In this document: positions 23,763-52,555 of the stretch, in pieces | Layout of the letters: each line of letters begins with the position of its first letter | Numbering within the stretch: position 1 is the stretch's first letter | Origin: Rhododendron vialii | Taxonomy: Eukaryota > Streptophyta > Magnoliopsida > Ericales > Ericaceae | Reading direction: 5' to 3' | DNA length: 64,000 nucleotides | NCBI RefSeq assembly: GCF_030253575.1 | Contig: NC_080569.1 | Coordinates: 5,519,501-5,583,500, forward strand | The notes under the pieces: generated by a model | What the model was told of the DNA's origin: nothing | What the model saw: only the letters and a program-made list of their open reading frames with translations | Databases searched by the model: none | Program-made: the position numbers and the translations under genes

Positions 23763-23803
<41 letters not shown>

Positions 23804-23935: not shown

Positions 23936-23939
23936 CTGA

Positions 23940-27009: not shown

Positions 27010-27400
27010 AAGTTCTAGAGGAAACGAATTTATCGAGCTTGTGAGAGCGAAGGACTAAAGCCTCAAATACGACGAAATGAAACCTAACAGCCTCTAAAGT
27101 TGAGGTAAGACACAGTTGAGCTAGACAAAAGGAAGATTAGTATAAGAACATACAAGCTTGCAGAAGAATGCGACTCCACGTCACGAATAAGTTTACAGTA
27201 GGAGTCAAAGAACTTACCAGGAACCAAAAAATTTCTAGGAAAAAGAGGGCGCAGATGCGTTTCTGTATATTCCAATCAACTGGATTTAAACTTTCTGCTT
27301 CCAGTTTTAGCAAAATGCCAAAACCTCATCCTTTTTTGGACAGGAACAGGAACCTTGACATGCTGAAGATGCAGTAAATGAATGATTGGTAAAACCAATA
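27010..27400 (-). pseudogene. QORH relic: exon 2 plus flanking intron
   Basis: On the minus strand this matches exon 2 and adjoining intron of the two intact QORH genes (34185-34880 and 43110-43440). The acceptor CTTCAG|CATGTC and donor G|GTAAGTTC are preserved. The reading begins HVKVPVPVQK, parallel to HVEVPVPTPK, but is then broken by a frameshift and an in-frame stop before a recognisable PLFPRNFLVPGK tail. No other QORH exon is present nearby. It lies just downstream of the PPR stop codon on the same strand, so it may be transcribed as part of the PPR 3' UTR. Confidence 0.85.
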
Positions 27401-27474
27401 AGTCCCTCAACTACAGTGATTTGAATCTGGTTTACATCCTGCTTGCTTTTCAGGACAAACGGACAGATTAGGAA

Positions 27475-30186
27475 TTAGATAATTGGCCTCTCATTCTGAT
27501 ACATTTGCTCAACTTGTCTTAGAAGCTCACGGAACTCAAAGGGTTCATCTTCCTTAACTAAGAATTCAATATAAGGTGATACTGCAGCTTTCTCCTCAAT
27601 ATTAGCATATCTGAAGAGATCACAGACCAGTCTTTGTGCTTCTTGAACCTTTCCTTTGTGGCGAAGACCAAGTATCAAAGAACAGTAACACGAAATGGAT
27701 GGAATAAAACCATTGTCGAGAATTAGTTTCATGAACCCAAGGCAGTAATCAAAATTTTTCTCCTCACAGAAGTGCTTAATGATCAAAGAACAGACAGATT
27801 TGTCAGGAACAAGACCACGTATCACCATATCTTGGACAAGATGACCTGCTTCTGACATTCTTCCCACTTTGCATAAACCCATTGCTAAAGAATTATGCAA
27901 CTCCACCGTGGAGCCCACACATTCCTTGATCTTATCTAGAAGTTCAAAAGCATCGCCAATATCTATTTCTCTGAAAACATGCTCAGCAAAGTAATCACCA
28001 TCGTTCTTCATTATAAGGGAGTATTTAGCCGCTACATCATGGAAAGAGCTCAGAGCTCCTTCCTTGTTGGCTGACATAACAAACCCTGCAAGCAATGCAT
28101 GGTAGATACGATTGTTTGGTTGAATGCCATTTCTAACCATTGAACTCACAATCTTAATTGCACAATCCAACCTACCAGATTTAACATGTGCTTGTACCAG
28201 TATAGTGTATGTAATGTGGTTTGGAGATAGACCTAAAAGGGGCATCTTGAAGAGAAGAGCATGTGCTTCCTCTACTCCTCCTAGTTGGCAAAGGCCATGG
28301 ATGACAACTGTATATGTGTAAACATTTGGGAGACACCCACTTTGTTTCATAAGTTCTACCATGTTAAAGGAATCTTTAGTACAACCTACTCGACACAGCC
28401 CATCTATTAATATAGTGTAAGTCACTACAGAAGGAACTAACCCATACTTGAACATCTTCCCCACCATTGCATTTGTTTCATTCAACCTAGTTTGTTTGCT
28501 GAGAACATCGAGGAATAAGTTGAATATATGCGGGCTCGTCAAATATCTACGGTCAACCATTCTCTCAAAAAGCATAAATGCAGTTCCAACTTCACCAATC
28601 TTGCAATACCCATCAATAAGAGCAGTCAATGTTACAACATCAGGTGATAGTCCCTTCTTTGTCATCAAACCCAAGACCCCATTTGCTTCCTCCGGTCTCC
28701 CTTGTTTGCAAAGCCCGTCAATTATGGCAGTACAAGTCAAACCATCAGGTCCAAGGCCAAGTGCTTCCATTGATTTTAATATGTCAAATCCCATTCTAAG
28801 TTGCCCTTCCTTGCAAAAACCATCGATCAGAATGTTGTAGGAAACTCGATCAGGCAATAGTCCATTATCAATGACCCTTCTCAGTAGCAACATCGCTTTG
28901 TAAGGCTTATTTACAATGCAAAGGCCTTCCATTAGCTCATTGTAGGTGCGAATAAGAGGTCTGCAATTTCTCCTTTCCATCACACTAAGTAGCTCAAAAG
29001 CAGAGACAACCCTCCCTTCCTTGCAGTAACCATTGATTAACGCATTGTAGGTTACTATGCCAGGAAACAACCCGTCTTTTAACATCTTTCTGAACATCCC
29101 ATTTGCCTCCTGAATCTTTCCTTCTCCACACAACCTATCTATCAACACTGTATAAGTGTGATTATTCGGTTTACATCCCTTCACAACCATCTCATCAAGC
29201 AAGCCTAAAGCCTTGTCAGTCAATCCTATGTCGCAAAGAGCTTTGATGAGGACGGTATAAGTACGCACGCTCAGCGGGCAGCCCTTTTCACTCATTTCTT
29301 CCTTCAACTGAAACGCCTCTTCAATCTCACCGGCTTCACATATCCCATGAATCAGTACTGAGTACGTTACACCATTGGGCTTACATCCCTCCTGCTCAGA
29401 CATTATGTCAAACACTCGGAAGGCCTCTTTGAGATCACCTACCCTGCAACTACCCAACACCAAGGAGGAACAAATATGGACATCCAAACGAAACCCAACC
29501 CTCAAAATTCTTGATAAAACCATCTCAGCAGCTCGAACAAACGCATTCTTGCACAGGGCATTAACAATGGACCTATAATCAACAATGCCAACAACAAACC
29601 CATCATCTACCATTCTTCTATACACGAAAAAAGCCGATCGACCCATGCTCAACTTAGCTAAGCACATCAAAAGAGTGCTGTAACTAGGGTAATTAAGCCT
29701 AAACCCTACCTCTCGCATTTCATCAAGAGCACCCATCAACTTGACAATCTCAACCTCGCCATTACAACTACACTCTTTAATCAAGAAAACTACGGCCTTA
29801 TGTGCAACAACAAACAAGTTACGAAAAACCATTAACTTCAACAGATGAACTCTACAGTGGAAATCGTAGCAGTAAGTGGATTGCTTGCATACCCATGTGA
29901 AAAAACGCACACCCAGCTCAACGTTGGAGCTGTGGCGTGCAATTACGTTGGAAGCTACGTGGGGAGGCATGTGAGAAACGAGTGATTTCAAGCGGTTGCT
30001 TTGTTCCCAGTTGGGTTGGGTTATCAGAGAAGATATATGGTGAACGGTGTCGTTCAGAGGAGTTGGGACTGTTTGGTTGGGTGGAGAGGGAAGAGGAGTT
30101 GATGAGAACATGGAAAAGGGGTGGGGTTTGTGGACATGAGAAGGTTTGAAGCGTGACTTGAGAAGTCTGTTGGTGTGAATCAACAT
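27475..30186 (-). CDS. P-class pentatricopeptide repeat protein, probably mitochondrial
   Basis: A single intronless ORF of 903 aa. PPR proteins bind organellar RNA in a sequence-specific way and act in processing, stabilisation or translation of transcripts. The N-terminus (about 1-45) is rich in Arg, Lys, Ser and Pro with few acids, consistent with an organellar presequence. From about residue 190 the chain is a run of 35-residue helical repeats of the P type (units such as TYTVLIDRLCGEGK, TYNALINGYCKEGR and SYNILIDGFCKEGQ), becoming degenerate beyond about 690. No E, DYW or SMR extension is seen, and the protein ends NERPII. Overall it resembles the Arabidopsis At3g07290 type. A second in-frame Met at residue 26 (MFSSTPLP) is an alternative start. 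The leader upstream contains a CT tract (30241-30283). Confidence 0.93.
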   Translation of the reverse strand: MLIHTNRLLKSRFKPSHVHKPHPFSMFSSTPLPSPPNQTVPTPLNDTVHHISSLITQPNWEQSNRLKSLVSHMPPHVASNVIARHSSNVELGVRFFTWVCKQSTYCYDFHCRVHLLKLMVFRNLFVVAHKAVVFLIKECSCNGEVEIVKLMGALDEMREVGFRLNYPSYSTLLMCLAKLSMGRSAFFVYRRMVDDGFVVGIVDYRSIVNALCKNAFVRAAEMVLSRILRVGFRLDVHICSSLVLGSCRVGDLKEAFRVFDIMSEQEGCKPNGVTYSVLIHGICEAGEIEEAFQLKEEMSEKGCPLSVRTYTVLIKALCDIGLTDKALGLLDEMVVKGCKPNNHTYTVLIDRLCGEGKIQEANGMFRKMLKDGLFPGIVTYNALINGYCKEGRVVSAFELLSVMERRNCRPLIRTYNELMEGLCIVNKPYKAMLLLRRVIDNGLLPDRVSYNILIDGFCKEGQLRMGFDILKSMEALGLGPDGLTCTAIIDGLCKQGRPEEANGVLGLMTKKGLSPDVVTLTALIDGYCKIGEVGTAFMLFERMVDRRYLTSPHIFNLFLDVLSKQTRLNETNAMVGKMFKYGLVPSVVTYTILIDGLCRVGCTKDSFNMVELMKQSGCLPNVYTYTVVIHGLCQLGGVEEAHALLFKMPLLGLSPNHITYTILVQAHVKSGRLDCAIKIVSSMVRNGIQPNNRIYHALLAGFVMSANKEGALSSFHDVAAKYSLIMKNDGDYFAEHVFREIDIGDAFELLDKIKECVGSTVELHNSLAMGLCKVGRMSEAGHLVQDMVIRGLVPDKSVCSLIIKHFCEEKNFDYCLGFMKLILDNGFIPSISCYCSLILGLRHKGKVQEAQRLVCDLFRYANIEEKAAVSPYIEFLVKEDEPFEFRELLRQVEQMYQNERPII

Positions 30187-30237
30187 GCAGGTAAGTTTGC
30201 ACAGGCATGTTTGTAGGTGTACATGGAGGGGAGAGAC

Positions 30238-30286
<49 letters not shown>

Positions 30287-31869
30287 GAGTTTAGAGGTTG
30301 GAACAGGACGGTGAAAGAACTGATGAAATTGTGGAAATTTGAACGAGCAGAAGCGGCGACAGAAAATCAAATCCCTCGATGTGAACAAAAGAGTAGGGAA
30401 AAATAAAAATAAAAATTCCCCCTTTGGATCCCTGTACAAAGATGAGGAAAATAACAATTCAACTTCCTTCTTATTTTCTCTCCAACTTTCCTTCTATTTT
30501 GTCTCTCGTTTATTTTCTCTTCTTTTTTTTTCTTCCCTTAACGGAGTTTTGTCCATCTTCGGGAATTTAACAAACTTCTAGTGAGGTATGTGATGCTATA
30601 AAAAATGATAGGTCACTTTGATGACTGAACCCGCAGAGCCGGTCCTGATTTTTTTGGGTTTAAAGCAAAAATAAAAAATAGAATTTCTTTTTTTGAACTA
30701 TAACAAAGAATAAAAAAAGTAGGAGGGGTTACAACTAAGGAATTTTTTGTTGGCTTAAAACGATCACAATACTTGCTTTAGTTACCGGCTTTTAAGGAGT
30801 TGATCAAAACACGCGAGTCTATCGATATAGTTCTACACCCAAGAATTAGATTTTTGATCAAGTATTTGCATTTAACAAAATTATTCAACTAATTCAAAAA
30901 AGTACTTATTTTTTTAAATAAAGGTGTATTGTGAGAGAATAACTTATTTCGTAAAGCAAAATGAACCGAGACTAACGAGGCTCAGGTGCGGAGCCTTCCA
31001 CTGTGGACCGAGACTACGCAAAGGTAGAACACCAAAGAAACTTCGTTGACTTTATCAATAACCTTGATTTCGCCACGAAAAAAAGGAACCCGGAATAGCG
31101 CAAATCGGTGCGCGTTCTGCGTTGTGTACGTTTTGGTAAAATAATTGGATTTTGGACGTGTCTTGCAAAATTAACTTTTGGTGAGCCATATTCGAGTCCA
31201 CTTATTAATGACCGGAATTGCATTTTTTTCTTCTTCTTCTCAGAACTGATTTATTACGAGACATGCCAAAATTCTGTCCAATCGAACATGGGTAAGTAGT
31301 TAATCGAAAATTTTGATTTCTACTCCTCTTGTTCTACACTCAGGAATTGGATTTTTTAACCAGCCATTGGCGGACCATTATAGATATTCGATTAAACTGA
31401 GCTTAACGCCCATATGAGTGCGAGCTCATCAACAGCAAACTGGTAAGGTAACCATTTGGCTCTTCCTGATAATGCAATTTCTTTCTCTCCCGCGACAGAA
31501 AACACACCTTGATACCATAATCTTATCGGAAAAATAGACATCATTGCGCAAAAAAAAAAACCCTCAACAAGCTTTGCGATTATATGTGGGGAATCAAGCA
31601 CATTCAGTGCGTAGTTTCGTACAGAACAAACAAACAAACGATCCGCATTTGACTAACACAACCAAACCTACCTGATGACCAAGAACCACCAAATACTGTC
31701 ATGTACTTGAAAACACCATGTCTACTGTAATCCGAAACACAACAAAGCAGAAAAACACATCACCAAACACCTGAACTTTATGCAGCACCCAGCATCTATG
31801 TATAACCGATCACAAGCATACCCTCTTTAATTCCATAAGAGTAACCCGAAGGATTCCACAAACGAAATT
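30187..31869. other. PPR leader/promoter and QORH1 3' flank
   Basis: A (GA)n tract at about 30241-30283 lies about 55 bp upstream of the PPR ATG, in its presumed leader. The rest has no gene. From about 31590 to 31869 the sequence is the QORH1 3' UTR and flank and aligns with 40618-40900 downstream of QORH2. Confidence 0.55.
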
Positions 31870-34800
31870 TCAAGGCTCCACAATGATTTTCCCAGTGGCA
31901 TGACCATCCATGCTCTTCGCCCAAGCTTCTTCAGCCTTACTCAAAGGATACTTCGAGTCTATAACAGTCTTAAGCTTCCCTTCCTTCACCAACTGCATAA
32001 GATAATCCAGGTTCTCACCTTTCGGAGCTGCCAAAAGCAGCACCAACTGCTTCTTCGAGCATGTCAGTTTCTTCACGGCAGAAGTCATGAAAGAACCAAA
32101 ACTCGGAGTCAGATCTATCACCTTCCCATTTGGGCTCAGATTAGGCTCGAAAGCAGAGAAAGGAATGCCCATGGCACAGTGGATAACAGCATCGTATTTC
32201 TGGCCGGATGGGCTTTTCAGAGCAGCTCCATCAGGCGTTTTGTAGTCCAATACCTCATCAGCCCCCAAGCCCTTCACGAAATCCAAGTTGCGGGCCCCAC
32301 AAGTGGCCGTCACGTATGTGTTTCCTAGCTTCGCTAGTTGAACTGCATAGAGGCCTACTCCGCCGGAGGCAGCCGTGATCAGAAGATTTTTCCGTGGTCC
32401 ACTTCCTTCAAGCTTAACCCCAGCCGACTGGGTAAGTGCCTGGTGGGCCGTAAGGCCCGCGACAGGTAGTCCCGCCCCTTCAGCTGCTGATACCTCAGGA
32501 GGCCTTGGAACTGTCAGATTCTCCTTGGCCACAGCAAACTCAGCTAGCCCACCTCCACTCTGTGATTCAATCCAGGGAACATCCAAAAACAACAATAGAC
32601 AACATTGACCATGTCAAACAATACAAATGTTACTCTGCTGAGCAAAAATAAATAAGAATACAAATGTTATTGAATAATTAAGCGACTCTCTTCACCAATA
32701 TGCCTTTTTCCTTCTTCTTTTTTATAAATAAAGTTCACTCCAGCACACCGAAAATTACTTTTTTCTGCACGTTTGGTGATTACCTCCCTTAAAATCATGT
32801 AGTCTAATCTAACAGTAAACACTTGCAAGTTGCCACCCATCAAGCAAAATGACATTTTTTGGCCTTCTTTCCTTCATTTCTTTTTTGGTGTTTAAGTTTG
32901 TTTCATTTTAACACGACAAAAATCATGGCAAGACTTAACATCACAAGTTGACTGTGATCAAAGAACAAGAAAAAATTGAGTCAACCGGAGCCAACTTAGT
33001 TCATAGTTGAACTTGATGCACAGAAACAGTTAAAAGGAGGAAAATAACCTTACATAAGGCGGTTTAAGAAAAAGATCTGAGGTTGTTTCTTTTTCTTTTT
33101 CTCCCTTTCTGGTAAGTACCTTCTTTTTTCTTTTTCATTTTTTAAGAGCTGGTAAGTACCTTATGATGTTACAAGCTTCTCATCACCTAGAGGCTAGCCT
33201 CAAAAATGATTTCTATGCGATGGCGAGCCTCAACAATGAGTTTTATGAGATGACAATAGTATTTATCGGGGATGTTATCAACTACTCATGAAAACAAGTT
33301 TTGGATCATTCAAAGCTTTTTGACAAGAAGTCTGCCTATGCAGCTTAGCTATTGCTTATTGGTGAATAGACACATGCAAAAACCGGAGAGAAAGGGTAAC
33401 AAACCATGGAAATATGAGACTTACAAAAGGACTAAGATAGGCTACAACTTTGTCACCAGATTTAAATTTCTTGACTCCAAATCCAACCTCTACTACTTCT
33501 CCTGCTACATCAGTAACTGTTCCAACCATAAGAAGGAAACAATCAGCCCCAAAAGTAAGTTCTAATTCTTCCAACACATCAATATGAGACATACGTCATC
33601 AAGTTCATTAAATTGCTAGACAAGACCTTCAAATGTTAATTTCAAAGCTCATATTAGCAACAAAACATCATAAAGTCGGGGGGAAAGGGAGTTTCAGTTA
33701 CATGTAACCAACTTCACAAGAAGATAAACAATTAACATTCACCTGACATTGGTAAGTGGTAACACACAAAGGAGAAAACTTTCAGATAATCTTTTACCTT
33801 GTGAATTTGTGTCAATTCTAGAATTTTTTGCCTCCTCTTTTCCACACACCAACTTCATTGTTTGTTCGCATTCAACACATTCCAGAAATTTCCCATTATT
33901 GGGGTTATGTCTACAGGAGAGACAAGTTGTGAGTGGTAACCATTTCAAAGATAGGGAAGACCTTATGGAACACTTGAACGCTCTTATTGATAATGAAATT
34001 ATCTTCTATAATAGTTTAATATAGTTAAATATAGCTGATTTGAGCGTTAATTGCTGGATATGGTCAAAGACGCCCAACCAAATACCATCATGGCACAGTC
34101 ATGTTCAAGATATAACATTCCAAATGACAGATATACCTTTAGAAAGACCAACTCTTGCCATAATGGTCCCTTTGAGAAAAAGTTCACAATTTAGACGAAT
34201 AGACTTGAGTTTATAAGAGTGAAGGACTAAAGCCTCAAATACAACTAAATGAAGCATAACCAGTTCTAAAGTTAAGGCAAGACAGCTGAGCTAGAGAAAA
34301 AAAAAGAGATACGAATTAGAAAATAGAAGCTTGTAAAATGGAAATTCGCAACTTCATGTAATGAATACTGACCAATGGTCCCAAAAATTTAAGCTATTAG
34401 GAAATGGGCCCAACAATGCATATCAAGCTATCTAACACCGTCCCTCACCTGCAACCCCGTCTTGCACATGCAGATGCAAATTTTAATAGATAGAGTGAAC
34501 CAGAATACGAATGGGAGAAGTAGAATGCGAACTGAGAACAAATGGAAATAGAGAGACTTGAAACCAAGACCTCTCCCAACCTGAGTTTTGATACCATGTT
34601 AAGTTACCAGTGGTCCCACAAGCTTAAGCTGTTAGGAAATGGGTCCAACAAAGTATGTCAAGCAATCTAACAAATATACTCATAATACGCGTCAACAAAC
34701 TTACCGGGTATGTAAGGAAATTTGGAAGGTAAAATAGGACGGAGCATGCCTTTCTGCATTTTCCAATCAACTGGATTCAAACTAGCTGCTTCAACTTTTA

Positions 34801-37436
34801 GCAAAACCTCATACTTTTTTGGGGTAGGAACAGGAACCTCGACATGCTGCATGATGCATTATATGCAACTTTATACTGATTGTTAAAAGGATAAATTTAT
34901 TGACCACAATGAATCCTTTTGTCAAGCTTCAGCAATATACTCAATCAGATGCAAGGGTCAAACTATCAAAAAGAAATTCCAGGATCCATTGGAAAGTTTG
35001 AGGATCAAAATTCATCCTCTCTTCTATTTCTACTCCCAAAGAACTCGACAACAAAAGCATAATCAGATTAAGCAAGAAAAAATTAAAAGAGAGATCATTT
35101 TCAAACTTCAAAAACATGATCTCTACTTCTGTATTTAGAGGTCGTTGTATGCTTTCATATCCTCAACGAGGAAGGCTAAAGTTCATATTCGAATGAATAA
35201 ATTAAGACCAAGCAGTACATAAGCAACCAATGGGATAAGAGGGAAAATTGCCCATACGCCCCCCGCCCCTTTCAGAGATTAATAGTTACTTCAATGGTGT
35301 CAAGGCAAAACAACATCATAAGCCACCTCCCTCTCGGTTGGCAGAGATTTAATATGCTAAATAGCGGTTTCCAACTTCTGATTGCTGAAAGAGGGAAATA
35401 ATTTATGCAGCATGCCTGGAATTCCATAGTAACTTCTACTGAAAGGAGAAAAGGGTCTAAATTTGGAAAAATGACCTTACTATCTCCAATTCTTACCCTT
35501 TTTTCTACCCAAACTCAAAATTTGAGTAAAAACACTGAAAACTCATCCCCAATGGCATATCCTTTGTCTACCCTTTTTCTCACCCAAATGAGGGAAAACC
35601 CATATCCAACCCTTTTTTCTCATTACATATTCTCACTTTCTTATTAGTTTTTAGTAATGTGCCATTTCGACAGAAAATGTGGAGGGAAAACATACAAAAC
35701 TATTGATTTGGGTAGAAGAAATAAAAGTTTAGCATTGGAGAAGGCATACACCCAAATGGAGTTATGACTCAAATTTGGATTAAAAAAATGGGTCAGGGCT
35801 GGAGATACTCTTAGGTGATCACTAATTTTATTCAACAGAACTTTGCCTTTCTCATTCTCTTAACCGACTAAATGAAAAAGATCTAAATGAGAATTTTGAG
35901 ATGGATGTGTGATAAGACTTCGGGAGTCAGAATAAGAAAGAAGAACATTCTTGGAATGATAGGGAGAGCACCGATTGAACATAAGATGAGAGAATAAATT
36001 AACTTGGTTTGGACATGTCCATCGTAAATCGACCCATACTATACTTAGGAGGAGTGATATGGTTACGGTTGATGGTAAAACGAAGGGGATGGTAGACTAA
36101 AATTGTCATTAGAAGTGGTAGTTAGAAGGAATCTATGTTTTTTTTATATCATGAAACATGATGCCCTCGACAAAAGTAACGTCACAAAACTCTTTGGGAA
36201 TAACGAATTCATGTAGGTAACTGCCAACCAAATTGATTGAGACATAAGGCTTTGTTTGGTCTCATTTGGTTATTCTCTTAGACTGACTGCACTTTATAGA
36301 TAATCTACTAGTGGCTTAAGATATACTGTTGTGTATGCTTGTTTGAGTTGGAGATGAATTCTATTCTTGTGTAATCAAACAAATGAATCTCGCGTACTTT
36401 AGGAGCCAAAACTGAACAGATGGTTGATCCTTTCTTGCAGACACGCTTTTTTTTCTTTTCAGGTACTGCTTCGACCTCGGGCAGAGACACTCTTTTCTTC
36501 AGGCACAATTTTCTTATAACTCCCAATCAAAGATGCTTTCAGTTGTTTTTTTTTTGGTATGTAGGAAATTAAAGATGCTTTCAGTTCAGCCACTTTCCTA
36601 TTACATTGCTTTTTCAGGCTCATGAAAATCCCACATCAAAAGACAAATGGACATGACAATTTCTTGCTAAGGACAATTAAACACAATTTGAAGCACTTTC
36701 CCCTATCTTATCTTTCGCATCTATAATTAGCAACGAACATCTTCTTTTCACCATGTAACCATTTACCAGAAATTAAATGCCACATTCGAGTGGTCCAAAA
36801 TGACAGTGCCTCGCCGTGCTGTGCTGTGAAGATCTGGAAAACCTAAACCTTATTAGGGCAACATCCCTGCACTATAGAAAGGTACTCCGTTTTGCCTGGG
36901 CTATAAAAGCATATAGTTTTTCCTTTTCATAACTCGGGGGTCCGGGCCACTTTGCGCACAACGCACAACTCACAATCCAGGGACCACTGTCCCACTAGCG
37001 GGGCCCAATTAAAGCCAGGAAAAGCCCTGTATGAACTACCCCAGGAAATTTCAGACCTATAATAAGAGATTAAAAGCATATAGTTTGACTACACTAAATT
37101 CCTTTTCGGTCTTTAATTTCACCGACACTAAACCTCTAGGTCCTCAAGGGCTTGTTCGTTTGGGGTACTCAAAACTCTTGCGCACGGTCTCAGCAAATTT
37201 CCTCTATCTCTCCACTCATTACACTTTAAAACCTTCCTAAAAACCCAAACTGAACATACTCCACATGACCCAGAAAAAAGGGTCTTTGAAATTTGAATGA
37301 CAGAATTTCAGAAGAAATTGAAACACTCAGAGGACCAATTAGATAGGAAACAGGGCAGAAACGAAATTACCTTCAAACCAGCGGTTCCTCCTCCGTAGTG
37401 GTCGTACTGAACCGCATGCATCAGTTTTCCGGCCAT
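31870..37436 (-). CDS. QORH: Quinone oxidoreductase-like protein, chloroplast-envelope QORH homologue, copy 1
   Basis: Medium-chain dehydrogenase/reductase without the zinc ligands of alcohol dehydrogenases. The Arabidopsis homologue is targeted to the inner chloroplast envelope without a cleaved transit peptide, and related enzymes reduce reactive enones with NADPH. Exons are 37436-37371, 34846-34705, 33516-33425 and 32559-31870, giving 990 nt and 329 aa, the family length, with all borders GT-AG and in frame. The protein starts MAGKLMHAVQYDHYGGG. The GroES-like N-domain includes SLNPVDWKMQKG and DVAGEVVEVG; the Rossmann fold carries AASGGVG (163-169) for the nucleotide; it ends HATGKIIVEP. 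Intron 1 is 2.5 kb and holds an Au-like fragment, an RTE remnant and a Tourist MITE; intron 2 holds a TRIM. A tandem paralogue lies at 40901-45095. Confidence 0.95.
34369..34672 (-). mobile_element. TRIM-like miniature LTR element in QORH1 intron 2
   Basis: Two direct repeats of 69 bp (34369-34437 and 34604-34672) share GGTCCCA, AAGCT, TTAGGAAATGGG and ATCTAACA. On the minus strand the sequence after the first repeat contains TGGTATCAAAACTC, a primer-binding site for initiator Met-tRNA (34583-34596), and the second repeat is preceded by purine-rich GGTGAGGGACGG, a polypurine tract. Flanks AATAC (34364-34368) and AATAT (34673-34677) fit a 5 bp target-site duplication. QORH2 lacks this insert at the matching place (about 43240-43258). 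Confidence 0.8.
35480..35810. mobile_element. Tourist-like MITE in QORH1 intron 1
   Basis: Ends CTATCTCCAATTCTTACCC and the inverted GGGTCAGGGCTGGAGATACTC are flanked by TTA on both sides (35477-35479 and 35811-35813). The homologous element in QORH2 is at 44034-44830, so the insertion is older than the gene duplication. Confidence 0.7.
35885..36250 (+). mobile_element. Degraded RTE-type LINE 3' end
   Basis: Plus-strand translation in two frames gives VRIRKKNILGMIGRAPIEHK, then LTWFGHVHR after a frameshift. This matches the conserved C-terminus of plant RTE reverse transcriptases (RIRNEHI..GVAPIEDKMRE..LRWFGHVQRRP). A typical tail, CCAACCAAATTGATTGAGAC followed by AAGGCTTTGTTTGG, closes it. 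It is inactive. The first part is also present in QORH2 intron 1 (about 44880-44990). Confidence 0.7.
36929..37033 (-). mobile_element. Au-like SINE 3' fragment
   Basis: On the minus strand the fragment reads CAGGGC.TTTCCTGGCTTTAA, GGGCCCCGCTAGTGGGAC and GTGGCCCGGAC, the 3' half of Au SINEs. The tRNA-like head is missing, so it is 5' truncated. It lies in QORH1 intron 1. Confidence 0.6.
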
Positions 37437-37757
37437 TTTGCCTTTGATTGATTCTCCTCTCATAAATATTCTCTACAAAAAATTTACCTGTTTTGCCATC
37501 AGTGTTTTTTTTCGTCTTCAGTGATTTTTTTTTCGATTTTTTTACAGCTGCGACAAGGCAACAATGAAGTGTGCAAAAGCAGAGTAAAACTGTTTGGATT
37601 TCGCGAGTAGGAGTTTCTGAGAGAGAGAGAGAGAGAGAGGGGAGAGGGAAGAAAGTAAAATTTATAGCAGCGACAAGACAACAATGAAGTGTGCAAAACC
37701 GTTTGGACTTCTCTCCCAAGCAACCACAGATACGTGACGTGTCAGTTGTCACCATCG
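37437..37757 (-). promoter_or_regulatory. QORH1 leader and proximal promoter, partly duplicated
   Basis: A segment reading CAACAATGAAGTGTGCAAAA with neighbours occurs twice (about 37546-37605 and 37666-37712), separated by a (GA)n tract (37618-37639); QORH2 has it once. TACGTGACGTGTC (37731-37743), containing two overlapping ACGTG cores, is conserved at 45235-45247 upstream of QORH2 and is a candidate bZIP site. Homology between the two promoters ends at 37757, where a palindromic element begins. Confidence 0.6.
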
Positions 37758-38105
37758 TGTACTGTAGGGAAAATGCACCAACGGCCACCGGACGGCCGTC
37801 TCCGGCCACCGAAAGGCTGATCCGAGCCGTCCAAAAATTTTAAAAAATAAAACTGAGTGGGCTTTTGCAAAAATCAATGACATCCGAGGTATGTAGGATA
37901 CTTGATCCAAGCACCCCTTTTTCGTCTATATATGTATATATATGTATATACGTGTATATACACGAAAAAGGGGTGCTCGGATCAAGTACCCTACACACCT
38001 CGGATGCCATTGATTCTCGCTTAAGCCCACTCGGTTTTGTTTTTTAAAATTTTTGGACGGCTCGGATCGGCCGTCCAGTGGCCGTCGGTGCATTTTCTCT
38101 ACGGT
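37758..38105. mobile_element. Palindromic MITE upstream of QORH1
   Basis: The element is a near-complete inverted repeat with arms of about 170 nt and a small loop near 37935-37965. For example, GTAGGGAAAATGCACC pairs with GGTGCATTTTCTCTAC and CCGAGCCGTCCAAAAATTTT with AAAATTTTTGGACGGCTCGG. Flanking direct repeats ACCATCG (37751-37757 and 38106-38112) fit a target-site duplication, possibly the 9 bp type of MULEs with two mismatches. One arm of the same family occurs at 43733-43930. Confidence 0.75.
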
Positions 38106-38372
38106 ACCATCGGTACCAATAGCAGTACTCCCAAAATACTAGTCGAAATACCTAATTTTGAGTTATTTTTTCTTCATATGATAAGAAGTTAGGGTGTGAT
38201 CCATTAACTAAAATAAAATATTGATTTTTTTGAATTAAATATGATATAATATGAGAGAACAAGGGATTGCCCGTGCTTCAAAGCGTTTTGAACACAAAAA
38301 GTTTTTTATCGCAATTTTTGTTTTTGTTTTTGTTTTTGATCTCTCATCGCTATTTTAAATTTTCTAATCTAG

Positions 38373-38877
38373 AAACCCAACACCCTCTACAACTGTCGGA
38401 TCAAATTTTCAAGAGATTATATCTATCTGTTCGAGAATACACTTCCTAATATAAATCTCCTAACCTTATGACTGATAAATTCTTTCAATTGATTGCTTTT
38501 AAGTTTTTTTCTTAAAAGGCTTGATTATCTTTTTGAATTTAAATCAACTCAATAATTGATTTCCCTCTAAAGTTGATTTCTTTATATTCAATTCAATATT
38601 TGCTTTTAAATTGTTTCCTTTTAGGCTGATTTACACATGTAGCTAAAAAATATTGAATTGAATGTATGGAAATCAACTTTAGAGGGAAATCAATAATTGA
38701 TTTGATTTAAACTCAAAAAGAAAATCAAGCCTTTTAAGGAAAAAAACTTAAAAGCAATCAATTGAAAGAATTTACCAGTCATAAGGTTAGGAGGCTTATA
38801 TTATGAAGTATACTCTCGAATGGACAGATATAGACTATTCAAAATTTGATTTGACAGTTATAGATGGTGTTGGGTTT
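38373..38877. mobile_element. Palindromic MITE-like element
   Basis: Left arm about 38373-38610 pairs with right arm about 38650-38877 around a short loop. Paired blocks include CCTAACCTTATGACTG with CAGTCATAAGGTTAGG and AATTGATTTCCCTCTAAAGT with ACTTTAGAGGGAAATCAATT. No coding content. Confidence 0.7.
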
Positions 38878-38917
38878 ATATGAGTAGACAAAAATTGCTC
38901 TATTTTATAATATAGAT

Positions 38918-39131
38918 GATCTGTCTCGCAAAGTGAAAAATAAGACCTTAAAAAATAAAAATCTTAGCTGAATGAATATGATATATTGTGAGAAAATGAT
39001 CTGTCTCGCAAAGTGAAAAATAAGTACTTAAAAATAAAAATCTTAGCGGAATGAATATGATATATTGTGAGAAAATGATTTGTTTCGCAAAGTGAAAAAT
39101 AAGTACTTAAAAATAAAAATCTTAGCGGAAT
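38918..39131. repeat. Tandem repeat, about 2.7 copies of a 79-80 bp unit
   Basis: Units begin at 38918, 38998 and 39077 with GATCTGTCTCGCAAAGTG or a near copy and include AAAAATCTTAGC and GAATATGATATATTGTGAG. The third copy is partial. Confidence 0.9.
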
Positions 39132-39291
39132 AGGGCCTTATTGCTAGATTTTATTACAAGCATTACTACACACGCAACTTTAAAATAAAAATCCAAACAC
39201 AATTATCGAACGGTGAGTTGTGTTTAAATTTTGTTTCGACCAAATATAAATTGCATATAATTATGAAATGGTGAGTTGTGTTTAAAATTGT

Positions 39292-39656
39292 ACGGGACGA
39301 TTCAAGGGATACCCAAAAAAACACCTAAAAAAACACCCAAATCTCAATCTCATAGTTTCCAATCGAATTTTGATCATCCGAACCGTTTAATGTGTGCAAA
39401 ATGTGATTTTAAGGGTGTTAGCGAGAAATTAGCAAAAAAAAAAAAGACTGGGAAAGGCTTGATTTGAGCATTTTTTATTTGAACCGTTCAATTCAAAACT
39501 GTTTGGATTAAGCCCTTTCCGGTCATTTTTTTTTGTTGATTTCTCGCTAGTATCCTTAAAATCACTTTCTGATCACATTGAGCGACTCGGATCATCAAAA
39601 TTTGATCGGGAACTATGAGGTGTTTTTTTAGGTGTCCCCGGAATCGCCCCGAGAAT
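39292..39656. mobile_element. Palindromic MITE-like element
   Basis: Imperfect inverted repeat with a central loop near 39470. The left arm has AAAAAAACACC, AATTTTGATCATCCGA and GTGATTTTAAGG. The right arm has their complements GGTGTTTTTTT, TCGGATCATCAAAATT and CCTTAAAATCAC. Non-coding. Confidence 0.65.
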
Positions 39657-39920
39657 CGTATGTATAGACTTTCTGTTAAATTATATTTTCTCGTTTTCAT
39701 GAATTATATGTGTAATCAAAAAACAAAACAAAATTTCCTAAGTATAAAAAACAAAAACAAAACAAAGAGTGCAATATTTTTTTGCGACGGAGACTACAAA
39801 AAGAAAGACCAACTTGTCCCTCACGCATGGACGTGACGTGAGGCATGACGATTTTCAAGTTGCAAATGACTTCTTGGCCAATTGATCACTCCCAGAAAAT
39901 GGAAGAAAATCACCATATTA

Positions 39921-40301
39921 TGTTGAGGAAATGAATCCCAAATTGCTTGGGGGTAGAATGGGTGATTACTTAATAACATTTGGGAACTCTCCACTCATTG
40001 CCAATTGATTTTGAGATGAATATAAAGTTTCTACATGGTATCAGAGCGGGGCCCGTTCCACCCCACATTTTAAAAATTAACAATCCACACCCCACGATGA
40101 CAGACCAGCAAAAAGGCTGCATGATAATAGGACCCAAAAGTGGCCACACGTGACAGACCTCAAACGCGGCTGCACGTGAGGGGGGATGTTGAGGAAATGA
40201 ATCCCACATTGCTTGGGGGTAGAATGGGTGATCACTTAATAACATCTGGGAACTCTCCACTTATTGCCAATTGATTTTGAGATGGATATAAAGTTTCTAC
40301 A
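39921..40301 (+). mobile_element. TRIM (miniature LTR retrotransposon), complete
   Basis: Two 115 bp LTRs (39921-40035 and 40187-40301) begin TGTTGAGG and end TTTCTACA, differing at about five positions. The primer-binding site TGGTATCAGAGC (initiator Met-tRNA) starts immediately after the left LTR at 40036-40047. A purine run GTGAGGGGGGA (40177-40186) precedes the right LTR. The 151 bp interior has no ORF. This is the full layout of a TRIM, mobilised in trans by autonomous elements. The flanks show only an imperfect, offset ATATT/ATATC duplication. Confidence 0.92.
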
Positions 40302-40389
40302 ATATCGAGTTTTTTTAATCAGAAGGAAACTTTATTTTACTTTAATTGATAGAGAAGAAAGAAAAATAATTTTGAAAAAAAAGAGTACG

Positions 40390-40550
40390 TGTACTCGGCT
40401 AGCAGCCCTTTTCACTGATTTCTTCCTTCAATCGAAATGCTTCTTCAGTCTCCCAGGCTTCACATAGCCCATGAACCAGTAACGCGTACGTTACACCATT
40501 GGGGTTAATTACATCTATCCTGTTCAGACAATGTGTTAAGAACTCGGATC
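40390..40550 (-). pseudogene. PPR relic (internal fragment)
   Basis: About 160 bp matching positions 29261-29422 of the intact PPR gene, same strand. The minus-strand translation NGVTYALLVHGLCEAWE, then EEAFRLKEEISEKGC, corresponds to NGVTYSVLIHGICEAGE, then EEAFQLKEEMSEKGC. It is cut off on both sides. On its right, from about 40600, the sequence switches to homology with the QORH1 3' flank (31590 onward), so about 2 kb present in the first copy is missing here. Confidence 0.9.
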
Positions 40551-40900
40551 GAAATATGGAATAAAGATGAACATAGCCCATGAACAAGCCTAGTGATTAC
40601 TTTTGACTAAACAGGGAATCAACCACATTCACAGAATACATAGTTTCGTACAGAACAAACGATCGGCATTTGACTAACACAACCAAACCTAGCAACCTGA
40701 TGAGACCAAGAACACCATGTCTACTGTCATTTACATGAAAACACCATGTCTACTGTATCCGAAACATTACAATGCAGAAGAACGCATCACCAAACACCCG
40801 ACCTTTATGCAGCACCTAGTACCTGTCTAACAGATCACATGCATACCCTCTTTAATTAATTTACATAGAAGTAACCTGAATGATTCCACAAACGATATTT

Positions 40901-43900
40901 TCAAGGCTCCACAATGATTTTCCCGGTGGCATGACCGTCAATGCTCTTCGCCCAAGCTTCTTCAGCCTCACTCAAAGGATGCTTCGAGTCTATAACCGTC
41001 TTAAGCTTCCCTTCCTTCACCAACTGCACAAGATAATCAAGGTTCTCACCTTTCGGAACTACAAAAAACGGCACCAGCTGCTTCTTAGAGCATATCAGTT
41101 TCTTCATGGCGAAAGTCATGAAAGAACCAAAACTTGGAGTCAGATCTATCACCTTCCCAGTCGGGCTTAGATTAGGCTTGAAAGCAGAGAAAGGAGTGCC
41201 CGTGGCACAGTGGATAACAGCATCATATTTCTGGCCGGATGGGCTTTTCAGAGCTGCCCCATCAGGTGTTTTGTAGTCCAATACCTCATCAGCCCCCAAG
41301 CCCTTCACAAAATCCAAGTTGCGGGCCCCACAAGTGGCCGTCACATGCGTGTTTCCTAACTTTGCTAGTTGAACTGCATAGTGGCCTACTCCACCGGAGG
41401 CAGCCGTGATCAGAAGATTTTTCCGTGGTCCACTTCCATCAAGCTTGACCCCAGCCGACCGGGTAAGGGCCTGGTGGGCCGTTAGGCCAGCAACAGGTAG
41501 GCCCGCGGTTTCTGCTGCTGATACCTCGGGAGGCCTTGGAACTGTCAGATTCTCCTTGGCCACAGCAAACTCAGCAAGACCACCTCCCCTCTGTGATTCA
41601 ATCCAGGGAACATCCAAAAACAACGATAGAGAAAATTGACCATGTCAAACAATACAAATGTTGCTTTTGAATAGTTAAGCGACTCTCTACACCATAACGC
41701 TGTTTCCTTCTTTTTTTGCAACAAAGTTCAGTCCAGCACACCGAAATTGCTTTTTTCTACACATTCGGTGATTACCTCCCCTTCAAATCATCCAGTCTAA
41801 TGGTAAGCACTTGCCACCCATCAAGCAAAATGACATTTTTTTAGCCTTCTTTTCCTTCATTATTTTTGGTGGTGTTTAAGTTTGTTTCATTTTAACGCAA
41901 CAAAAATTGTGGCAACATTTAACATCAAAAGTTGACTATGATCAATTAACGAGAAAAAAATTGACTCAACCAGAAAAACTTTTTAACCAACTTAGTTCAA
42001 GGTTGATGCATAGAAACAGTGAAAGGAGGAAAATAACCTTCGGTTAGGCGCTTTAAGAAAAAGATCTGAGGTTGTTTTCATTTTTTTCCCTTTCTGGTAA
42101 GTACCATCTGATGTTACAAGCTTCTAGGGAAACCGCCTCATCTAGAGGCAAGCCTAAAAAATAATTTCTATGAGATGGCGAGCCTCAAAATTGAATTTTA
42201 TGAGATGACAATAGTATTTAAGTGGTCCTCGTGAAAACAAGTTTTGGATCATTCACAACTTTCTGACAAGAGGTCTGCCTCTGCAGCTTAGCTATTGCCT
42301 TTTGGTGATTACAGGCATATGCAAAAACCGGAGAGAGAGGGGAAATGAGACTTACAAAAGGACTAAGATAGGCTACAACTTTGTCACCAGGTTTAAATTT
42401 CTTGACTCCAAATCCAACCTCCACTACTTCTCCTGCCACATCAGTTACTGTTCCAACCACAAGAAGGAAACAATCAGACCAAAAGTAAGTTCTAATCCTT
42501 CCAACTCATCAATATGATCAAGTTCATTAAGTCCTTCAAACGTAAATTTCAAAGCTCATATTAGCAACAAAACATCATAAAGTCAGGGGGAAAGGGAGTT
42601 TCAATTACATGTAACCAAATTACCAAGCCAAAAAATCTTCCAGAATCGAACAATTCTTGGAACATTCACCCGACATTAGTAAGTGTTAACACAAAAAGAA
42701 GAAACTTTGAGATAATTTACGACTTTGTGAATATGTGTCAATTCTAGGATCTTTTGGTCCTCTTTTCCACACACAAACTTCATTGTTTGTTCCCATTCAA
42801 TGCATTCCAGAAATTTCCCATAATTGCGGTTATGTCGGGAGGAGAGGAGTGTCGTGAGTGGTAACCCTTTCAAAGATAGGGAAGACCATATGTAACACTC
42901 AAACGCTCTTATCGATCTTGAAATTATCTACTATAATAGTTTGATATAGCTGATTTGAGTGTTAATTGCTGGATCTTTATGTATAAAGACACTAACCAAA
43001 ATGTACCATCATGGCACAGTCATGTTCAAGATATCACATTCTCGAGATAGACCAATTCTTGCCATAATGAAGGTCCCTATGGGAAGAAGTTTACAATTTA
43101 GACGAATAGACTGTATTGAGTTTATAAAAGTGAAGGACTGAAGCCTCAAGTACAACTAAATGAAACATAACCAGCTCTAAAGTTAAGGTGAGACAGCTGA
43201 GCTGGAGAAAAAGAAAAGGAAATTCGCAACTTCAAGTAATGACTACATCTACAATACGCGTCAACGAACTTACGAGGTATGTAAGGAAATTTGGAAGGTA
43301 AAATCGGACTCAGCGCGCCTTTCTGCATTTTCCAATCAACCGGATTCAAACTAGCTGCTTCCACTTTTATCAACACCTCGTCCTTTTTTGGGTTACGAGC
43401 AGTAACCTCGACATGCTGCAGGATGCATTAAATGCAACTTTAAACTGATTGGCAAACGGATAAATTAATTAAACACAGTGAATCCTTTTGTACAACTTCA
43501 GCAATTTACAAGTGATGGATATTCTCGTACATATCAGATGTAAGTGTCAAACTACCAAAACAGGGTTAAACGTCATCCTCTCTTCTAATTCTCTACTCCC
43601 GAAGAACTCACAGAAGCATAATCAGATTAAGCGAGAAAAAAATTAATAGAGATCATTTTCAAACTTCAAGAACATGATCTGCACTCCTGCATTTACAGGT
43701 CTTTATAAATCCAACCTCCACTACTTCTCTGAGTGCTGCTAATGGTACCGACGAGATTCCCATAGAAATCATACCGACGGCCGCGCCGGGCCGTCTCCGG
43801 CTACCGGACTGTAGATCCGAGCCGTCTAAATTTTTTTTTAAAAAAAACCGAGGGGGCCCCTGCGCAGGAATCAACGGCATCCGATGTGTGTAGGGTGCTT

Positions 43901-45095
43901 GATCAAACACCTTTTTTTTCGTGTATACATATAGAGGGAAATAACTTATGCAGTATGCCTGGAATTGCACAGTGAGTCAGTGACAACTTTTACTCAAAGA
44001 AGGAAAGGGTATAAATTTGGAAAGATGACCTTGGCATCTCCGATCCTTGCCCCTTTTTTCTACCCTAACTCAAAATTTGGGTGAAAGCGCTAAAAACTCA
44101 TCTCCAAATGGCATATCCTTTAGCCTACCCATTTTTGTTTACTCTTTTTCTTACCTACTACATAAGGGGAAACCAGATCTAAACATTTTTCTCAACAACT
44201 CTTTTCACTTCCTTATTATTTACTAATGTGCCATTTTAGTAGAAAATATGATGGGAAAACATTAAAAACAATAGATTTGGGTAAAAGTGAAAGTTTAGCA
44301 TTGGAGAAGACGGAGGCGGGGGGCTGCTGCCCCATGGGGCAGCGTGCTGCTTCTCGGGTTTTCGGGCTCACTCCGGTCTCGCTCCGATGATCGAAAATGT
44401 TCACTTTGTAAAGCTCGTTGAGTAGAATAACTATGTAAAAAATCAGCTTAATTGGATATCATTAAGTGCCTAATCGGAGCCCATATAACTCTCGGTCCAT
44501 AGGTTACAGTGGATTTGATCCAGTGTTTCGGATCCATTCTTTTTAAGATAAAAAGGTTCCGATCAGGTACTTAATGATATCCAATTAAGCTGATTTTTTG
44601 CATAGTTATTTTATTCGATGAGCTCTACAAAATGAACGTTTTCGATCATCGGAATGAGACCGGAATGGGCCCGAAAACCCGAGACAGCAGCACGCTGCTG
44701 CCCCTTGGGCAGCACCCCCCTCCGGAGAAGACATACCCAAATGCGATTTTAAAAAAAAAAGGGCGCATACCCTGATGAAGTTTTGACCCAAGTTTGAATT
44801 TTATAAGGTGGGTCCGAGCTGGAGATGCTCTGAGATATCACTAAACTTCGTCTTTTCCATTCTCTTAACAAACTATATGAAAATGGTCTAAATGAAAATG
44901 TTGATATGGATGTATGTAAAGACTTTGGGAGCTAGAATTTGAAAAAAGAAAATTCATGGAATGATAGGGGTAGCGCCGAGAGTTACTGGGAAACAGGAAA
45001 AGAAGAAGAAGAAGAAATATATATATTACCGTGAGACCAGCGGGTCCTCCTCCGTAGCAGTTGTACTGAACCGCGTGCATCCGCTTCCCGGCCAT
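40901..45095 (-). CDS. QORH: Quinone oxidoreductase-like protein, QORH homologue, copy 2
   Basis: Exons are 45095-45030, 43415-43274, 42447-42356 and 41590-40901, giving 990 nt and 329 aa, the same four-exon structure and phases as copy 1. The protein starts MAGKRMHAVQYNCYGGG, has AASGGVGHYA in the nucleotide-binding loop (copy 1 has AASGGVGLYA) and ends HATGKIIVEP. About twenty substitutions separate the last exons, with no frameshift or stop. The exon 2 donor reads C|GTAAG instead of G|GTAAG; with the next exon this makes Leu and preserves frame. It appears functional. Intron 1 carries a Tourist MITE with a nested palindromic element and one arm of another palindrome; intron 2 lacks the TRIM of copy 1. 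Confidence 0.94.
43733..43930. mobile_element. Single arm of the palindromic element family
   Basis: Related to one arm of the 37758-38105 element: GACGGCC, GATCCGAGCCGTC, CAACGGCATCCGA, TGTGTAGGGTGCTTGATC and TTTTTTCGTGTATA occur in the same order. The second arm is absent. It is preceded at about 43709-43731 by a 23 bp copy of QORH exon 3 sequence. Confidence 0.65.
44034..44830. mobile_element. Tourist-like MITE in QORH2 intron 1, interrupted
   Basis: Orthologous insertion to 35480-35810, with ends GCATCTCCGATCCTTGCC and the inverted GGTCCGAGCTGGAGATGCTC. The flanking triplets are now TTG and TGA instead of TTA. It is enlarged by the nested 412 bp palindromic element at 44312-44723. Confidence 0.7.
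44312..44723. mobile_element. MULE-type palindromic MITE nested in QORH2 intron 1
   Basis: Begins GGAGGCGGGGGGCTGCTGCC and ends with the matching inverted GGGCAGCACCCCCCTCC. The arms pair over nearly the whole length (for example AATTGGATATCATTAAGT with ACTTAATGATATCCAATT). It is flanked by a perfect 9 bp duplication GGAGAAGAC (44303-44311 and 44724-44732), the length typical of Mutator-like elements. The homologous intron of QORH1 has the empty site GGAGAAGGC at 35737-35745. Confidence 0.9.
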
Positions 45096-45300
45096 CAATG
45101 GAAATTGCAAATGTTTAGAGACAACGTGCGAGAGTATATTTGAGAGAGAGAGAGAGAATTTAGCAGCGACAACAGTGGAGTGTGTACGAAGCATAGGAAA
45201 ACTGATTGCGACCTCTCTCGCAAGCAACTGCAGATACGTGACGTGTCAATTGGTATCATCGCCATAAAATGGACGGAAGAGAAAGTCTACAGCCACCACC
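45096..45300 (-). promoter_or_regulatory. QORH2 leader and proximal promoter
   Basis: Contains a short (GA)n tract (about 45141-45155), the block matching the QORH1 leader, and TACGTGACGTGTC (45235-45247). Beyond about 45262 it no longer resembles the QORH1 promoter. A palindromic element begins at about 45301. Confidence 0.55.
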
Positions 45301-45832
45301 GAACCCAAAATGCGGTGGCCGGCCATGCACACCATGTGGGTCCACTTCGGTCTCCGCACCGATGATTCGAGCTTTGTTCTCTTTGTAACTTAAAAAGAAT
45401 TTTTCAAAAAATTCTTCCTAAATTTTCTCTACTTTCAATATTTCTCCCTCTATCTCTCCCCACTTATTGCCCATACTATTTTTCAAAAAACTTTTCAAAT
45501 TTCAATCCAAACAAAACATTAATAATTTTTTAAAAAAAAGAGTGGATACGCGAAAAATTATCTCGATCCGATATGTGTAGGTGCTCGGATCAAGCTTAAA
45601 TCGGAAAACCAATTTTCCATTTTTTCCGATTTTCCAAAGATGAGAAGTTTGATCCGAGCACCTGCACATATCGGATCGAGATGATTTTTCGCGGTACCCA
45701 CTCATTTTTTCTTTATTATGTGGGCTGTCGTTTTTTTTTTTTTTTAATTATTGAATAGATCGAATCATCTTTGCGAGGTCCGGAGTGGGCTCCAAACAGC
45801 ATGTATTGGTCGGCGACCGCATTTTGGGTTCG
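45301..45832. mobile_element. Palindromic MITE upstream of QORH2
   Basis: Outer arms GAACCCAAAATGCGGT and the inverted ACCGCATTTTGGGTTC, with an inner perfect hairpin CTCGATCCGATATGTG / CACATATCGGATCGAG around 45545-45710. Total length about 530 bp, no coding potential. Its right arm (TCTTTGCGAGGTCCGGAGTG) resembles the right arm of the element at 46007-48451. Confidence 0.7.
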
Positions 45833-52494: not shown

Positions 52495-52500
52495 GTTTTT

Positions 52501-52555
<55 letters not shown>

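What the first reader, a model, noticed from the sequence alone, without database searches (positions are those of the whole stretch)
27010..45262. Alternating PPR-QORH array: tandem block duplication with relics on both sides
Order along the window is QORH exon-2 relic, intact PPR, intact QORH1, PPR fragment, intact QORH2, all on the minus strand. This alternation is best explained by a PPR-QORH block that duplicated at least twice; one PPR copy and one QORH copy then decayed to about 160 and 390 bp. Homology between units covers 3' flanks (31590-31869 and 40618-40900), all exons, introns and about 160 bp of promoter. A tandem pair of metabolic genes interleaved with a fertility-restorer-type gene family is an unusual unit.
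Basis: partly seen in the sequence, partly recalled or inferred. Interest (0 to 1): 0.75.

Follow-up and report, generated by a model that had tools for sequence, protein, structure and literature searches.

The report
Duplicated QORH–PPR gene pair in Rhododendron
In a rhododendron, an apparently old neighbouring pair of plant genes (a chloroplast detoxifying enzyme and a mitochondrial RNA-binding protein) was copied side by side; the enzyme kept both copies, the extra RNA-binding gene crumbled to a scrap, and an even older enzyme copy survives as a fossil: ordinary gene-cluster evolution, unusually easy to read.

Summary
Self-alignment finds two intact ceQORH-type genes (QORH1, QORH2; four exons each), one intact PPR gene, a PPR fragment (40394–40584) and a QORH exon-2/intron-2 relic (26944–27385), all on the minus strand. 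The source matches Rhododendron vialii. (1) QORH beside this PPR is not a new unit: a Sesamum gene model fuses QORH→PPR, and the two share a contig in 7 of 14 comparable species. (2) The PPR is the At3g07290 orthologue; its tree follows species, unlike fertility-restorer PPRs. (3) QORH1/QORH2 duplicated after the Vaccinium split, before R. simsii and R. griersonianum parted; a R. griersonianum gene model runs PPR-fragment–QORH–PPR. The QORH relic is an outgroup to both genes, about 2–3 times older. (4) QORH1/QORH2 divergence steps up in intron 1 (13% to 21–24%), so the pair is a mosaic. I favour one unequal crossover between QORH copies flanking the PPR, then loss of one PPR. Gene conversion is a close rival; the PPR fragment's age, which could decide, depends on the yardstick. 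Ordinary cluster evolution, well resolved.

The parts
26944..27385 (-). QORH relic: exon 2 (about 27218-27362, frameshifted) plus the 5' part of intron 2; starts within about 90 bp of the PPR stop codon
   Evidence: BLAST to QORH1/QORH2; three-way alignment; tblastn piece 27254-27316
27475..30186 (-). Intact PPR gene, 903 aa from the ATG that lines up with orthologues; At3g07290 orthologue, P-class, one open frame
   Evidence: ORF, Pfam PPR_2 E=1.5e-139, homologues named At3g07290 mitochondrial, tree
31589..31869 (-). QORH1 3' flank homologous to QORH2 3' flank
31870..32559 (-). QORH1 exon 4
33425..33516 (-). QORH1 exon 3
34371..34672 (-). Short element with 67-bp terminal direct repeats and a TGGTATCA primer-site-like motif in QORH1 intron 2; absent from QORH2 and from the relic
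   Evidence: TRIM label recalled
34705..34846 (-). QORH1 exon 2
35074..35595 (.). Interval in QORH1 intron 1 holding the change-point in QORH1/QORH2 divergence (3' side 0.12-0.13, 5' side 0.205-0.235)
   Evidence: three of four settings; the harshest trimming widens it to 34697-35595; aligned segments only
37371..37436 (-). QORH1 exon 1
37437..37757 (-). QORH1 5'UTR/promoter, partly homologous to QORH2
39920..40301 (+). TRIM-like retroelement: two 116-bp direct repeats (111 of 116 identical) and TGGTATCAGAGC primer site
   Evidence: TRIM label and primer-site motif recalled
40394..40584 (-). PPR fragment (relic of a second PPR copy), homologous to 29270-29484 with an internal deletion, frameshift and stop
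   Evidence: found again at the N-end of R. griersonianum P0121
40614..40900 (-). QORH2 3' flank
40901..41590 (-). QORH2 exon 4
42356..42447 (-). QORH2 exon 3
43274..43415 (-). QORH2 exon 2
44319..44720 (.). Palindromic insertion in QORH2 intron 1, between stretches homologous to QORH1 35390-35743 and 35750-35974
45030..45095 (-). QORH2 exon 1
45096..45261 (-). QORH2 5'UTR/promoter homologous to QORH1

Best explanation
[quoted passage not shown] simsii and R. griersonianum separated. One PPR copy decayed to about 190 bp, returning that gene to single copy at the locus; both QORH genes stayed open (average Ka/Ks 0.26). An older QORH copy downstream of the PPR survives as the exon-2 relic. The most likely mechanism (inferred) is one unequal crossover between the upstream QORH and the older downstream QORH, within intron 1, turning QORH-PPR-QORH into QORH-PPR-QORH-PPR-QORH. 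That makes QORH1 a chimera: its body is a recent copy of QORH2's lineage, while its first exon and promoter descend from the older copy. Shown: homology, order, the order of the two QORH splits, a second species with PPR fragment-QORH-PPR order, the divergence step. Inferred: the crossover itself, the older copy's former completeness and that it already stood there.
For: Homology map and intact gene models. QORH1-QORH2 Ks 0.216 (95% bootstrap 0.15-0.29), Ka 0.057, ratio 0.26; noncoding K2P 0.162 over 2616 sites. QORH tree of 28 proteins: the six Rhododendron array proteins group 100/99, Vaccinium as sister 99/96. R. simsii Rhsim13G0050200/0050300 are the two copies, with consecutive gene numbers. 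R. griersonianum P0121 begins with a stretch holding FMGYVHLYS, found in the window fragment at 40558-40584 (the intact PPR reads VHICSS there), and goes on with QORH and then PPR. QORH relic: of 386 columns 20 group it with QORH1, 19 with QORH2, 76 set it apart from both; intron K2P 0.333 and 0.293 against 0.110 between the genes, 0 of 2000 bootstraps reversed. Change-point in intron 1: 0.132 to 0.235, 0 of 300 block permutations, kept on trimming (0/300) and on trimming without the promoter (6/300, 9/300); exon 1 11/66 vs exons 2-4 75/924, Fisher p=0.037. The 5' divergence (0.235) is close to relic-gene intron divergence (0.24-0.27), as the crossover predicts.
Against: The older copy's 5' half is gone, so the chimera's donor cannot be checked; gene conversion or uneven mutation rate could also give the divergence step. 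The PPR fragment (25/151 differences) fits the younger QORH age if exon Ks is the yardstick (18.8-23.3 expected) but fits the older, 5' age if noncoding divergence is (24.6-30.2 expected against 13.4-16.7 at the younger age, P(X>=25) 0.002-0.027), which favours an older block copy plus conversion. In exon 2 the relic is nearer QORH1 (27/137) than QORH2 (35/137). Exon 2, on the young side of the step, also has a high Ks (0.269). The R. griersonianum gene between PPR fragment and PPR groups weakly with the QORH2 side (89/74). No relative's DNA was available; linkage rests on contig lengths, gene numbers and fused gene models and is missing in 7 of 14 species.
Confidence: 0.5

Rival explanations
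1. Block duplication of QORH-PPR with breakpoints outside QORH, older than it looks, followed by gene conversion that homogenised the 3' part of the two QORH genes (3' flank to intron 1). The QORH relic is then a third copy, perhaps of about the same age as the block.
For: The same divergence step. With noncoding divergence as yardstick the PPR fragment, which lies outside any QORH conversion tract, fits the older 5' age (24.6-30.2 expected, 25 seen) and not the younger. The R. griersonianum copy between PPR fragment and PPR groups weakly with the QORH2 side, as exchange between copies would give.
Against: With exon Ks as yardstick the fragment fits the younger age better (P(X>=25) 0.08-0.38 younger; P(X<=25) 0.007-0.12 older). 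It needs one more kind of event than the crossover.
Confidence: 0.33
2. One reading: two or more whole PPR-QORH block duplications, with one PPR and one QORH copy decaying.
For: Alternating order and shared strand; at least two duplication times are needed.
Against: No third PPR copy was seen next to the QORH relic (tblastn over the window; 22000-26943 against 26944-37757 gave one 67-bp match, E=0.001). A plain block copy predicts uniform divergence along QORH, which fails.
Confidence: 0.12
3. The two relics are unrelated fragments captured and dropped there by transposable elements.
For: The PPR fragment lies 92 bp from a TRIM-like element (39920-40301), and 37.8-39.6 kb holds three palindromes.
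Against: The PPR fragment starts about 30 bp from the end of the QORH 3'-flank homology, in block order and orientation, and a R. griersonianum gene model shows the same order. The QORH relic keeps intron sequence, on the same strand, beside the PPR stop. The TRIM repeats differ at 5 of 116 sites, much less than the duplicates.
Confidence: 0.03

Closest known systems
ceQORH / chloroplast envelope quinone oxidoreductase homologue (Arabidopsis; PDB 5a3j, 5a3v, 5a4d)
   Same: QORH1 aligns over 1-329 on 1-329 of 5a3j; 251 (QORH1) and 243 (QORH2) of 329 residues identical; Asn46, Arg190 and Thr251, named in passages of PMC5343027, are kept in both
   Different: Here two tandem genes that differ from each other at 37 of 329 residues
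At3g07290-type mitochondrial P-class PPR
   Same: Full-length orthologue; 97% identical to the R. griersonianum protein over 891 columns
   Different: A decayed second copy stands between the two QORH genes
Tandem and proximal duplicates in Rhododendron
   Same: The R. simsii paper counts 4746 tandem and 3732 proximal duplicates (PMC7572368, passages); the QORH1/QORH2 orthologues there have consecutive gene numbers
   Different: Here two neighbouring, unrelated genes were copied together and one extra copy decayed
RFL (restorer-of-fertility-like) PPR clusters
   Same: P-class PPR repeats; PPR copy number change at a locus
   Different: Nearest relatives are orthologues in other species, not paralogues in the same species

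Membership tests
ceQORH family | Full-length co-linearity with solved ceQORH | tested here: met
   QORH1 to 5a3j E=2.5e-163, residues 1-329 on 1-329; QORH2 compared position by position, 243/329 identical
ceQORH family | Ligand-site residues Asn46, Arg190, Thr251 | tested here: met
   Kept in QORH1 and QORH2; roles from passages of PMC5343027
ceQORH family | NADPH-dependent oxoene reductase activity and chloroplast envelope location | not testable with these tools
   Needs protein and cell work
At3g07290 PPR orthologue group | Gene tree follows the species tree | tested here: met
   30-row tree, window with R. griersonianum 100/100, inside Ericales 100/100; 29 of the 77 listed hits were used, chosen by me at one per species, so copy number per species was not tested by the tree
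RFL PPR clade | Nearest relatives are paralogues in the same species (species-specific clusters) | tested here: not met
   Among 77 hits the best are R. griersonianum and Camellia orthologues and only one is from Rhododendron (the R. vialii, R. simsii and Vaccinium PPRs are not in that list); tree; criterion from PMC5138203 passages
RFL PPR clade | Grouping with known Rf proteins in a tree | not tested
   No Rf sequence was fetched
Tandem segmental duplication | Same-strand copies with shared introns and flanks, same age along the block | tested here: inconclusive
   Same strand, introns and 3' flank shared, but divergence along QORH is not uniform and the PPR fragment's age depends on the yardstick
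TRIM retroelement (39920-40301) | Terminal direct repeats, tRNA-Met primer site, target-site duplication | tested here: inconclusive
   116-bp repeats 111/116 identical and TGGTATCAGAGC present; flanks ATATT/ATATC, one base off the repeat end on the left, match 4 of 5 only (read by eye)

The most novel reading that the evidence does not exclude
QORH1 is a chimera born by unequal crossover between two QORH copies that flanked a PPR gene: it carries the promoter and first exon of a now-dead older copy and the body of its neighbour. The crossover rescued an old promoter from a dying gene while the PPR caught inside the block fell back to single copy. The locus would be a datable natural case of promoter swapping in a plant detoxification enzyme, with the donor's fossil still in place.
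Probability: 0.35. Interest if true: 0.4.

Novelty: new member of a known kind. Interest (0 to 1): 0.3.

Why it matters
It shows how a puzzling 'alternating array' arises from old linkage plus one local duplication, and how relic age separates events that look alike on the map. If the chimera reading holds, the locus offers a direct test of whether promoter exchange by crossover keeps both duplicate enzymes alive, and of why the PPR partner returns to single copy.

Tried and rejected
Fertility-restorer reading: dropped. Transposon capture of the relics: see the rivals. A further array member upstream: 51826-51923 matches the QORH1 5'UTR region in inverted orientation (79% over 101 bp), but it is A/T-rich and tblastn shows no exon there; left unexplained. 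Placing the QORH relic by protein: over 32 residues read in pieces it is closest to Camellia (27), with Vaccinium 25, QORH1 24, QORH2 22 of 32; it keeps Leu in KLEA and Ile in IQK like many outgroups, which hints at a split before Vaccinium but is too short to decide. Of 25 sequences meant for that comparison 3 were not matched by my pattern (Sarracenia_b, Cornus_b, Bertholletia). Dating the PPR fragment: at first taken as support for the younger age; a check with the noncoding yardstick points the other way, so it is now given as undecided and I lowered the crossover's odds for that reason.

The linkage count was typed by hand from the listed hits (120 listed of 1622, 77 of 77, and 120 listed of 1280). 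Dropped before the count: Ulmus minor and Jatropha curcas (the PPR on a contig under 0.1 Mb; with both as misses it is 7 of 16, binomial p 6e-6 to 6e-3 for chance rates of 5-15%), Camellia sinensis and Perilla (entries from different assemblies or varieties), Vitis vinifera (QORH entry without contig), R. griersonianum and Sesamum radiatum (fused models, told apart). Hibiscus syriacus, although fragmented, was kept as a miss. As counted, 7 of 14 has p 2e-6 to 2e-3, and by genus 6 of 12 has p 1e-5 to 5e-3. Arabidopsis is a counter-example by its locus names (At3g07290; At4g13010 for ceQORH is recalled).

Papers: PMC7572368, PMC5138203 and PMC5343027 were seen as passages only, PMC10338486 as abstract and outline; others only in search listings. 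Searches of the held library with no paper found: At3g07290; quinone oxidoreductase with pentatricopeptide and tandem duplication in Rhododendron or with microsynteny. One search (At4g13010 with tandem) listed three proteomics or lipidomics papers.

Full report
What is there. The window is plant DNA. Its QORH1 protein is 100% identical over its 329 residues to a Rhododendron vialii protein annotated as chloroplast envelope quinone oxidoreductase homologue (P0002; taxonomy). I take the window as R. vialii or a very close relative; its genome paper is PMC10338486 (abstract and outline seen). The own-genome search did not complete, so all DNA evidence is from the window itself; other species enter as proteins only.

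Check of the observation. QORH1 (exons 37371-37436, 34705-34846, 33425-33516, 31870-32559) and QORH2 (45030-45095, 43274-43415, 42356-42447, 40901-41590) both splice to 990 nt and 329 aa without internal stop. They share 292 of 329 residues and keep Asn46, Arg190 and Thr251 of ceQORH (roles from passages of PMC5343027). The PPR reads 903 aa from the ATG at 30186 to the stop at 27475. The PPR fragment covers 40394-40548 by BLAST and reaches 40584 by a peptide match, with an internal deletion. The QORH relic covers exon 2 and part of intron 2, with frameshifts. tblastn over the window shows no further copy of either gene. Read along transcription the order is QORH2, PPR fragment, QORH1, PPR, QORH relic.

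The pair is older than the array. The closest PPR relatives that carry a family name are called At3g07290, mitochondrial. In a tree of 30 sequences, one per species by my choice, they follow the species: window with R. griersonianum 100/100, then Camellia and Bertholletia (100/100), then Cornus and Nyssa, asterids apart from Vitis and rosids. [quoted passage not shown] no Rf protein was put in the tree. QORH and this PPR are linked elsewhere: a Sesamum radiatum gene model fuses QORH and PPR in that order (P0187), a R. griersonianum model fuses PPR fragment, QORH and PPR (P0121), and Pterospermum gene numbers are close (Ptkin12aG0110200 PPR, 0110600 QORH). Contig lengths coincide in 7 of 14 species with both proteins listed from comparable assemblies, or 7 of 16 with two dropped species as misses: above chance, not universal. 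So a local copy of the QORH region would readily carry the PPR with it. Tandem QORH genes also recur elsewhere: consecutive or near-consecutive gene numbers are seen in Gossypium, Buddleja and Rubus.

Ages. QORH1/QORH2: Ks 0.216 (0.15-0.29), Ka 0.057, ratio 0.26, noncoding K2P 0.162 over 2616 sites. In the QORH protein tree of 28 rows the six Rhododendron array proteins form one clade (100/99) beside Vaccinium (99/96); R. vialii QORH1 pairs with R. simsii 13G0050200 (95/95) and QORH2 with 13G0050300 (95/89). With the dates in PMC7572368 (Rhododendron/Vaccinium 55.93 Mya; R. simsii against R. delavayi and R. williamsianum 14.54 Mya; passages), the duplication falls between these two, if R. griersonianum belongs with the latter pair (recalled). 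The QORH relic is different: in shared intron columns it stands at K2P 0.333 and 0.293 from QORH1 and QORH2, which are 0.110 apart there; over all 386 columns 20 group it with QORH1, 19 with QORH2 and 76 set it apart. In exon 2 alone it is somewhat nearer QORH1 (27 against 35 of 137). I read it as an outgroup, roughly 2-3 times older. The PPR fragment differs from the PPR at 25 of 151 sites. With exon 2-4 Ks (0.209) as yardstick 18.8-23.3 are expected at the QORH1/QORH2 age; with noncoding divergence 13.4-16.7 at the younger age and 24.6-30.2 at the age of the 5' side. Its date is therefore undecided between the two.

A step in divergence. Over the aligned segments, from the 3' flank to mid intron 1 the two genes differ at 12-13% of noncoding sites; from about 35.1-35.6 kb to the promoter at 21-24%. 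Block permutation reaches the observed likelihood in 0 of 300 trials on all columns, 0 of 300 on trimmed ungapped blocks, and 6 and 9 of 300 when the promoter is also left out under two trimming levels. Exon 1, aligned without gaps, agrees (11/66 against 75/924, p=0.037), though exon 2 also has a high Ks (0.269). The 5' value is close to the relic-gene intron values (0.24-0.27). This is what one unequal crossover within intron 1, between the upstream QORH and an older downstream QORH, would leave: QORH-PPR-QORH becomes QORH-PPR-QORH-PPR-QORH and the middle gene is mosaic. An older block copy followed by gene conversion over the 3' part is a close rival; the PPR fragment would decide if its age were firm, and it is not. 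The R. griersonianum gene at the QORH1 position groups weakly with QORH2 (89/74), a result against a simple two-clade history and for some exchange between copies.

Other events. A TRIM-like element (39920-40301; repeats 111/116 identical) sits 92 bp from the PPR fragment, and a second one lies in QORH1 intron 2 only; the first is much younger than the duplication by its repeats, the second is private to one copy. R. griersonianum P0009 joins the window's 52.0-52.6 kb gene to a QORH2-type gene, which suggests the same upstream neighbour there.

Verdict. The biology is ordinary: retention of a duplicated enzyme, loss of a duplicated PPR, on an old linked pair. The mosaic structure and the different relic ages are the part beyond routine.

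Noticed in passing
37803-38084, 38360-38891, 39321-39635, 44319-44720, 45533-45710: Five long palindromes (178-532 bp, arms 74-87% alike) crowd into 8 kb of the array; the others that this scan found in the window are shorter than 140 bp. They look like fold-back or MITE insertions.
   Followed up: partly
34371-34672: Short element with 67-bp terminal repeats in QORH1 intron 2, missing from QORH2 and the relic.
   Followed up: partly
51826-51923: Inverted 101-bp match (79%) to the QORH1 5'UTR region 37445-37545, close to the 3' end of the 52.0-52.6 kb gene; A/T-rich, origin unknown.
   Followed up: partly
37541-37698: QORH1 5'UTR holds a partial repeat (37541-37578 vs 37661-37698, 92%); by eye the shorter QORH2 5'UTR has it once.
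   Followed up: no
38916-39131: Direct tandem repeat of about 80 bp, 95.6% alike, between the PPR fragment and QORH1.
   Followed up: no
60516-62200: Inverted and nested repeats (up to 552 bp, 80%) upstream of the LRR receptor kinase gene.
   Followed up: no
4651-5832: GTP cyclohydrolase I gene with two matched Pfam stretches in one open frame.
   Followed up: no
52042-52638: Minus-strand gene without Pfam match, the neighbour upstream of QORH2; fused to a QORH gene in the R. griersonianum model P0009.
   Followed up: partly
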